Assembly: GCF_000478585.1 (NCBI RefSeq)
Contig: NZ_ARWI01000001.1
Span: 2,418,001-2,482,000 of the forward strand
Source: Thiomicrorhabdus sp. Kp2
Lineage (GTDB): Bacteria; Pseudomonadota; Gammaproteobacteria; Thiomicrospirales; Thiomicrospiraceae
Reading direction: 5' to 3'
Length of the DNA: 64,000 nt
Part shown: positions 62,430 to 63,588 of the stretch, piece after piece
Numbering within the stretch: position 1 is the first letter of the stretch
Layout: each line of letters opens with the position of its first letter
The notes under the pieces: model-generated
Database searches by the model: none
Seen by the model: only the letters and a program-made list of their open reading frames with translations
Told to the model about the DNA's origin: nothing
Program-made: the position numbers and the translations under genes

Positions 62430-62467
62430 AAAAGCCCATTTTACCAGGCCTGGTAAAATGGGCTTTT
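62430..62467. terminator. Strong bidirectional terminator built on CCAGGCCTGG
   Basis: A perfect 38-bp palindrome, from AAAAGCCCATTTTACCAGG to its complement, with TTTTT on the right. The decamer is at 62444-62453. It lies between the converging ppnP and nuclease-like genes. Confidence 0.92.
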
Positions 62468-62474
62468 TGCTAGA

Positions 62475-63365
62475 TTAATAAGCTTGAACACCAAATTTTA
62501 AAAGTAATTTTGGAAGATGGTCATCCAAGTTTTGAACTTCATGGTCTTTCAGTTCAATTAAATTAAAACCGTACTTTTTATAGATTTCTATTTTTTTCTG
62601 TTTTCTTTCTAAATATTTTGGTTGCTCTTCAAGCCCCCAATATTCAATGTAGACCTTTCCAGCGGGGATGTAAAAATCAGAATAGACATCTTCTTCTATG
62701 GGGAGCTTGCGTTCATAGGCATGAACTATTTCAGCCATATAGAGCCAATTATCTATAAGCATTTCGGCTTTTGAACGCACCATGTGGCCATCAGTTGTTC
62801 TGTGAGTCGCTTTAAATTTATCTCTGAATTCTTTTTTGGTTTCTTCTAGTGAACTAGGTTCTTTGTTATTACCCTTTAGTTGCTCAATAGTTTCTTTTAG
62901 TGATTTATTATCAAGAATGCTTTGCGGCCAACGCACATAGGGAATACCTGAACGATAGTCCTCCGATTGTATCGCTTTCAATTTAAGACCTTGAGCCGTT
63001 GCTTGCCATCCTTTTAGGGCTTTTTTAATCCAGCCAAGCTCAGAGAGAATTTGATTGGTTTTATTAGCCGAAATTTGAAAGTGTTGACCAATTGTTTTAG
63101 ATGTTAATTGTGAATCTTGCGGGGATGTTGTTTCTTGTGCCTGTGCTGTTAAGCTTGAAAGATTTTCAGGCCAAACAATGTATTGACCAAATCGTTTGCT
63201 TTCTTGGTAACGGCCTCCTTGAGAAATACCTAAATCAGTCAATTCCCAGGAGTCATTAGACTTCTGTATCCATTGAGCTTTTTCAAGCAGGTTAAAAAGC
63301 TCTTTACTGCTTATATTTTCTTTTTTACTTAATGCAGAAGTAGAAAGATAGGCCACGGTAGTCAT
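62475..63365 (-). CDS. Probable PD-(D/E)XK nuclease with two N-terminal DNA-binding-like repeats
   Basis: A 296-residue protein not assigned to a named family. Residues about 6-67 and 85-152 are two copies of one module (a helix-turn-helix-like core, then W-x-x-T-x-x-G and a Y-V-x-W-P ending). The C-terminal part fits a PD-(D/E)XK nuclease: E201 in RSKAEMLIDNWL, D230 in YSDFYIP, E241 with a following G in VYIEYWG, and Lys near 255-258. The gene stands alone and is convergent with ppnP. Nuclease activity and a role in DNA repair or defence are inferences. Confidence 0.6.
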   Translation of the reverse strand: MTTVAYLSTSALSKKENISSKELFNLLEKAQWIQKSNDSWELTDLGISQGGRYQESKRFGQYIVWPENLSSLTAQAQETTSPQDSQLTSKTIGQHFQISANKTNQILSELGWIKKALKGWQATAQGLKLKAIQSEDYRSGIPYVRWPQSILDNKSLKETIEQLKGNNKEPSSLEETKKEFRDKFKATHRTTDGHMVRSKAEMLIDNWLYMAEIVHAYERKLPIEEDVYSDFYIPAGKVYIEYWGLEEQPKYLERKQKKIEIYKKYGFNLIELKDHEVQNLDDHLPKLLLKFGVQAY

Positions 63366-63447: not shown

Positions 63448-63588
63448 TTAATTTTGTTTCTGTTGTTGATTTTTTTTATTTTTTTGATATTTAAAAAGAA
63501 AATGCAAACCAAAATGTATCAAAATTAAGAATACAAAAAATCCTATCGCAATTTCGCCAATGTAGTGAATCCACATAATGTTTCCCAT
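63448..63588 (-). CDS. 46-residue single-helix membrane protein
   Basis: Short frame starting ATG 63588 (or ATG 63576, which has GGGAA upstream). The product has one hydrophobic helix (IGFFVFLILIHFGLHFLF) and a Lys/Gln-rich tail. No family recognised. It lies divergent from the SulP gene. Confidence 0.45.
   Translation of the reverse strand: MGNIMWIHYIGEIAIGFFVFLILIHFGLHFLFKYQKNKKNQQQKQN

What the first reader, a model, noticed from the sequence alone, without database searches (positions are those of the whole stretch)
62475..63365. Stand-alone PD-(D/E)XK-like protein with an internal DNA-binding repeat
Residues 6-67 and 85-152 are two copies of one module, each ending in a Tyr-Val-x-Trp-Pro-like motif. 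The C-terminal part has the E ... D ... ExY-x-G ... K arrangement of PD-(D/E)XK nucleases. Two DNA-recognition repeats fused to a nuclease suggest sequence- or structure-specific cleavage. It could be connected with the overrepresented palindrome, but that is pure speculation.
Basis: partly seen in the sequence, partly recalled or inferred. Interest (0 to 1): 0.55.

Follow-up and report, generated by a model that had tools for sequence, protein, structure and literature searches.

The report
DNA-binding nuclease, candidate phage defence
The gene makes a protein with two DNA-gripping modules joined to a DNA-cutting domain; it belongs to a scattered, little-studied family listed as candidate virus defence, one branch of which, common in what are almost certainly Vibrio bacteria, seems to have lost its cutting residues while being kept by selection.

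Summary
Window 62475-63365 (-) encodes 296 aa: two homologous winged helices (repeat profiles match at probability 99.2, E 8e-20) and a PD-(D/E)XK domain whose predicted fold is near the I-Bth0305I and Vsr endonucleases (Z 10.7, 10.2). It is not an orphan: it matches PADLOC's candidate single-gene defence family PDC-S69 over its full length (E 9e-114); that name occurs in no paper of the library searched. The gene is a one-gene insertion at a site empty in relatives, found in 2 of 95 related genomes. The suggested link to CCAGGCCTGG is not supported: 8 of 10 palindrome-rich congeneric genomes lack the gene, and the palindrome sits in the same terminator at empty sites.

(2) 15 of 80 other loci have a NERD, Mrr or UvrD/HelD-like helicase protein as nearest neighbour (NERD 6 of 147 neighbours, about 0.014 expected).

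Most likely a stand-alone DNA endonuclease against foreign DNA; the defence role is unproven.

The parts
62475..63365 (-). PDC-S69-type protein, 296 aa: winged helix 1 (residues about 3-68), winged helix 2 (84-152), linker (153-180, partly low confidence), Vsr-like PD-(D/E)XK domain (184-292)
63162..63359 (-). winged helix 1, residues 3-68, ending YIVWP
62910..63116 (-). winged helix 2, residues 84-152, ending YVRWP
62490..62816 (-). Vsr-like PD-(D/E)XK domain, residues 184-292, with E201, D230, E241, K258
62430..62467. 38-bp perfect inverted repeat, terminator-like by eye (the scan listed no terminator), between the convergent ppnP gene and this gene, with CCAGGCCTGG at its centre; the same kind of element is at empty sites in relatives
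63448..63576 (-). 42-aa small membrane-protein-like ORF directly upstream on the same strand; part of the older locus
   Evidence: presence in relatives read by eye

Best explanation
The protein is a stand-alone DNA endonuclease. Two tandem winged helices grip double-stranded DNA, and a flexible linker presents a Vsr-like PD-(D/E)XK domain that nicks or cuts nearby with E201, D230, E241 and probably K258. No methyltransferase lies beside it, so the host is most likely spared because the target is a structure, a modification or a replication state found on incoming phage or plasmid DNA, or because cutting needs a partner. It spreads as a single gene between distant bacteria and serves mainly against foreign DNA. 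Shown: predicted fold, internal repeat, conservation, insertion, patchy spread. Inferred: DNA binding, cutting, the kind of target, and the defence role.
For: Full-length match to PADLOC candidate defence family PDC-S69. Model with two winged helices (best matches RacA-DNA and MerR-type structures, Z up to 5.9) and a nuclease core (I-Bth0305I Z 10.7, Vsr 10.2, TnsA 7.5). Active-site residues kept in nearly all of 87 rows from nine named phyla, exceptions told under the observation check. Sparse: 2 of 95 relatives, own genome included; 6 of 369 class genomes with a full-length match at E 2e-100 or better; 9 of 74 genomes of another family, one of them partial. Single-gene insertion; the copy in congener G015 is at another locus, 57% identical, and does not group with the window copy on a weakly supported tree. 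A related nuclease domain is built into PDC-S68, HEAT_CxxC_PDDEXK and HelD-like helicases. Some neighbours are defence-type genes: type IV restriction helicases (2 of 147 nearest neighbours), a TIR-NACHT protein, an OLD-like ATPase.
Against: No general enrichment of PADLOC models beside the gene by a rough measure: 70 distinct models matched among 147 nearest neighbours, 55 among 114 genes further out. The family is near-core in one genus and in Photobacterium five loci share neighbours, which is unlike a typical defence gene. PDC labels are mostly unproven; two other PDC systems tested in a native host showed no evidence of activity (PMC12409345, passages read). In the window the neighbours are not defence genes.
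Confidence: 0.48

Rival explanations
1. A genome-maintenance nuclease: the winged helices and Vsr-like domain recognise a DNA lesion or branched structure, and the nick is processed by a helicase or nuclease partner.
For: Seven Methylococcales loci, one on a conjugative plasmid, have a HelD-like UvrD helicase directly upstream on the same strand, 34-58 bp away, while the genes beyond differ; NERD and Mrr proteins recur beside it; fold near Vsr, a repair enzyme; near-core in one genus.
Against: Absent from most genomes, including 93 of 95 relatives, so not needed for ordinary repair; the helicase partner is absent from the window genome at E 1e-60; 65 of 80 loci have none of the three partner types as nearest neighbour, some of them at contig edges.
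Confidence: 0.28
2. A DNA-binding regulator whose nuclease part is now only structural, as proposed for the Vibrio-type branch.
For: In 58 copies of one genus (Vibrio by inference) E241 is lost in 55 and K258 in 54, with dN/dS median 0.037 and the fold kept.
Against: The window copy and the rows nearest to it keep E201, D230, E241 and K258.
Confidence: 0.13
3. A homing-type selfish endonuclease that spreads by cutting empty sites.
For: Top fold match is the homing endonuclease I-Bth0305I, tied with Vsr; single-gene insertion at an empty site.
Against: It lies between genes, not in an intron, intein or conserved gene; the two congeneric copies sit at different loci; no relative confirmed in the viral collection.
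Confidence: 0.06

Closest known systems
PADLOC PDC-S69 (PDLC05067), candidate single-gene phage defence
   Same: Matches residues 6-296 to profile 5-289 of 289, E 9e-114
   Different: No paper of the library searched names it; the profile fits Vibrio-type copies better (E about 1e-133) than the window's form, and most such copies read have a changed active site
Vsr / I-Bth0305I / TnsA branch of PD-(D/E)XK nucleases
   Same: Core fold of residues about 184-294, Z 7.5-10.7; mitoribosomal chains and 3hrl score as high, so the fold alone does not pick one member
   Different: No Pfam Vsr match listed up to E 10; different active-site spelling; tandem winged helices in front
KilAC/ANT winged-helix domain (PF03374)
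   Same: Close relatives exceed the Pfam cut-off, L004 with two matched stretches
   Different: The window protein itself scores 22.8 bits against a cut-off of 25.3
HelD-like UvrD helicases with a PD-(D/E)XK insert
   Same: Insert is homologous, blastp E 3e-10, with E201, D230, E241 and K258 aligned to identical residues
   Different: Those are about 980-aa helicases with zinc ribbons; here the nuclease stands alone behind winged helices

Membership tests
PADLOC PDC-S69 | full-length profile match | tested here: met
   6-296 to 5-289/289, E 9e-114
PADLOC PDC-S69 | anti-phage activity | not testable with these tools
   candidate family; 'PDC-S69' in 0 papers of the library
PD-(D/E)XK superfamily | core fold | tested here: met
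   Z 10.7 (rmsd 2.7, 92 aligned) to 3r3p, 10.2 (2.9, 99) to 1cw0; predicted model only
PD-(D/E)XK superfamily | motif II Asp and motif III Glu | tested here: met
   D230 and E241 in the window protein; 87 of 87 and 83 of 87 rows
PD-(D/E)XK superfamily | catalytic Lys of motif III | tested here: inconclusive
   ExY instead of ExK; K258 on the next helix is the candidate: mostly lost together with E241, but on only 2-3 tree changes
Vsr mismatch endonuclease | sequence membership (Pfam Vsr) | tested here: not met
   not among the four families listed up to E 10, (HMMER filters drop most matches above about 0.1)
Vsr mismatch endonuclease | T:G mismatch nicking | not testable with these tools
   needs an enzyme assay
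KilAC/ANT winged helix (PF03374) | score over the Pfam cut-off | tested here: inconclusive
   window 22.8 bits, below 25.3; L003 26.6, L004 37.4, L005 29.5 bits; L007 and L009 not listed
Type II restriction-modification | cognate methyltransferase beside the nuclease | tested here: not met
   window neighbours are ppnP, a 42-aa ORF and sulP (gene names recalled from sequence); only adjacency tested, not the rest of the genome
Homing endonuclease | location in intron, intein or interrupted gene | tested here: not met
   intergenic insertion between ppnP and the small ORF

The most novel reading that the evidence does not exclude
PDC-S69 is a two-state family. In most phyla it is a sparse, mobile, catalytically intact DNA nuclease that repeatedly sits beside NERD, Mrr or HelD-like zinc-ribbon proteins and may work with them. 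In Vibrio it was domesticated, apparently once, into a near-core protein that kept the DNA-binding modules and the nuclease fold but gave up motif-III Glu and Lys, so that defence catalogues count a non-cutting housekeeping or regulatory protein as phage defence there.
Probability: 0.4. Interest if true: 0.62.

Novelty: new member of a known kind. Interest (0 to 1): 0.46.

Why it matters
A catalogued but, in the library searched, functionally untouched defence candidate gains a concrete anatomy, named active-site residues and candidate partners that can be tested. The Vibrio-type branch, near-core and under strong selection with changed catalytic residues, would mean that automated counts of this family in that genus may not count a cutting defence system, and it offers a case of a nuclease turned to a different conserved function.

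Tried and rejected
Link to the CCAGGCCTGG palindrome: tested by phyletic pattern and by the empty site, not supported. Viral relatives: two scans of viral contigs found none confirmed; in the phage records 9 of 50,697 matched, each over only one repeat or only the nuclease part. In plasmid records 78 of 72,556 matched, 7 over at least 80% of the query. Solved relatives by sequence: the single sequence gave nothing below E 0.25, the 62-row profile nothing up to E 10; Foldseek against the PDB gave no match with E of 0.001 or less. Defence-island test: the number of PADLOC models matched was not raised near the gene (distinct models, not proteins, so a rough measure), so I do not use 'defence island' as an argument. 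HelD-like partner in the window genome: only partial helicase hits, best E 5.6e-13, none at E 1e-60. A regular expression for zinc ribbons found only 2 and was too strict; Pfam counts were used instead. The independent-pairs test of E241 against K258 has too few independent changes to be a test. Literature: 'PDC-S69' 0 papers; further searches gave background only; four papers were seen as passages, the rest as search listings. That the Vibrio-type branch and the neighbour pattern are not in print rests alone, in a library without preprints and with supplements not searched.

Weak points of the counts: gene calls in flanks are greedy longest ORFs; the near and far sets leave out genes under 100 aa or over 1100 aa; the 80 loci are the best of 346, so they lean towards the window protein; the NERD base rate (34 matches in 100 Pseudomonadota genomes) assumes about 3,500 genes a genome and ignores relatedness of loci (L060 and L081 are neighbours on the tree, L019 and L020 near each other) and that half the NERD phyla were not in the base sample. 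55 of the 109 positive species of the Vibrio-type genus were read at the residue level, chosen as the best-scoring ones plus a hand-picked set mostly from the lower part of the list.

Full report
What is there. The reading frame at 62475-63365 (-) is real and intact. Family columns for the two proposed repeats align with each other at probability 99.2 and E 8e-20, while neither aligns with the nuclease part. An AlphaFold2 model from an alignment of 62 sequences (mean pLDDT 83.9, pTM 0.44, so domain placement is unsure) shows two winged helices with the same order of elements and a separate nuclease core. Against solved structures the core matches the I-Bth0305I catalytic domain (Z 10.7, rmsd 2.7, 92 residues), Vsr (Z 10.2, 2.9, 99) and TnsA (7.5); two chains of the Toxoplasma mitoribosome (10.3, 10.0) and the putative endonuclease 3hrl (9.9) score as high, so the fold does not single out one relative. 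The winged helices match RacA and MerR-type DNA-binding domains at Z up to 5.9, which by itself is only a common arrangement. Foldseek alone gave no PDB match with E of 0.001 or less.

What it is called. Pfam and NCBIfam list no family over its cut-off. PADLOC does: PDC-S69, full length, E 9e-114; a related nuclease part also appears in PDC-S68 and HEAT_CxxC_PDDEXK. PDC systems are described as putative candidates from a guilt-by-embedding approach, most of them not validated (PMC12988326, passages read; the preprint on embedded defences by Payne and colleagues was seen as a reference in PMC12629846). The name PDC-S69 occurs in no paper of the library.

Distribution. A scan of one genome per species found 346 relatives, of which the best 80 were kept. 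With the other rows they fall in nine named phyla; the phylum label needs 12 changes on the tree against 24.2 in shuffles, so there is both clade-wise inheritance and probable crossing between groups (quick tree, many weak branches). In the window's own surroundings the gene is rare: 2 of 95 relatives, own genome included, and 6 of 369 genomes of the class with a full-length match at E 2e-100 or better (16 of 369 counting partial matches down to E 0.001). In 398 genomes of the phylum, 20 match at E 1e-40 or better, 8 of them of one Vibrio-type genus and 9 of one other family. The two congeneric copies are 57% identical, lie at different loci and do not group together on the weakly supported tree.

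The insertion. Of 30 fetched ppnP loci, 19 show sulP within reach; one is the window; of the other 18 none has the nuclease, and 16 have ppnP and sulP at most about 650 bp apart against about 1,290 bp in the window (the other two, L101 and L107, have about 1.3 kb of other sequence). In the nine relatives whose interval was printed, a small ORF like the 42-aa one of the window can be read by eye before sulP. The gene therefore sits between an older terminator-like element and an older small ORF. Gene names ppnP, sulP and gloA are recalled from the sequences, not from a call.

The palindrome. CCAGGCCTGG occurs 17 times in the window (0.02 expected) and 718 times in the genome; 10 of 32 congeneric genomes hold at least 100 copies. 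Only 2 of the 32 have the gene, so 8 palindrome-rich genomes show none, 5 of them at least 90% complete. The copy beside the gene is the centre of a 38-bp inverted repeat, and four empty sites (L100, L103, L104, L105) have the same palindrome in the same place; a fifth, L099, of a palindrome-rich genome, does not. I conclude that the two things are independent.

A conserved branch that lost its active site. In the genus of G589, 109 of 148 species carry the family at E 1e-40 or better, a few of them partial or split. The genus is unnamed in the tool; copies from named Vibrio records are 94% and 91% identical to members (L010 to L136, L006 to L200), so I call it Vibrio by inference. I read 58 copies (3 named records and 55 of the 109 species): E201 is kept in 58, D230 in 52, E241 in 3 (51 Q, 3 H, 1 K) and K258 in 4; the three that keep E241 all keep K258, though one of them, L182, has lost D230. 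In 149 rows, counting K or R as kept, no copy has lost K258 while keeping E241, and one of 56 has lost E241 while keeping K258; but these are only 2 to 3 changes on the tree, so the coupling is suggestive, not a test. Among 158 pairs 80-97% identical with dS under 1.5, median dN/dS is 0.037, and 0.053 in the nuclease part, with median dS near 1. A model of one such copy keeps the fold (pLDDT 82.8; Z 11.3 to 3r3p). So selection keeps the protein and its fold while catalysis is probably lost or changed. Outside this genus, L149 and L150 and the Photobacterium plasmid copies L008 and L009 have lost E201.

Neighbours. Among 147 nearest neighbours (100-1100 aa) of the 80 loci, Pfam finds topoisomerase-type zinc ribbons in 11, NERD in 6, UvrD helicase in 6 and Mrr in 3. 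Among 114 genes further out in the same loci none of these four is in the list of 25, which bounds each at 1. The NERD, UvrD and Mrr cases are 15 of the 80 loci. NERD proteins are found 34 times in 100 Pseudomonadota genomes; with an assumed 3,500 genes a genome that predicts 0.014 among 147. The six NERD cases form one blast cluster (two confirmed singly by Pfam) and lie in four phyla (L019, L020, L060; L049; L076; L081), three of them on the same strand 95-110 bp downstream, three on the opposite strand. The helicase case is one order, Methylococcales: seven loci counting the plasmid copy L004, same strand, 34-58 bp, with different genes beyond, L004 being on a conjugative plasmid. The helicase carries a homologous nuclease insert in which E201, D230, E241 and K258 all align to identical residues. 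Three Methylomonas loci (L044, L054, L055) lack the helicase upstream. The window copy has no such neighbour.

How it most likely works. From the anatomy: the winged helices bind DNA, the nuclease nicks or cuts near the bound site. No methyltransferase lies beside it, so the target must differ from host DNA by structure, modification or state, or activity must depend on a partner. Sparse spread, single-gene insertion and the PADLOC assignment favour action on foreign DNA; the helicase pairing, Vsr-like fold and near-core status in one genus favour DNA maintenance. I put the first at 0.48 and the second at 0.28. DNA binding, cutting and biological role were not shown here.

Noticed in passing
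whole genome; 17 sites in the window, e.g. 62444-62453: CCAGGCCTGG is a highly iterated palindrome: 718 copies in this genome, at least 100 in 10 of 32 congeneric genomes, few or none in most others; in 14 of 17 window sites it is the centre of a longer perfect inverted repeat, 12 to 38 bp.
   Followed up: partly
window 13689, 13884, 14079: Three palindrome copies spaced exactly 195 bases apart, hinting at a tandem repeat.
   Followed up: no
window 63448-63576 (-): 42-aa membrane-protein-like ORF between sulP and the nuclease gene; by eye it is present at the same place in relatives.
   Followed up: partly
L133-L140, L152-L201: Near-core copies in the genus inferred to be Vibrio, most with E241 and K258 lost, under strong purifying selection.
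   Followed up: yes
L004:5006-8891: HelD-like helicase and PDC-S69 gene as a tight pair on the conjugative plasmid MEALZ_p.
   Followed up: yes
L008, L009: Distant copies on Photobacterium plasmids (24-25% identity) without E201 and E241.
   Followed up: partly
L007:7866-8672: A Nostoc plasmid copy aligns with one winged helix only, with a cysteine-containing N-terminus in place of the first.
   Followed up: no
G934:C1:931955-932819: A copy that appears split into two overlapping reading frames.
   Followed up: no
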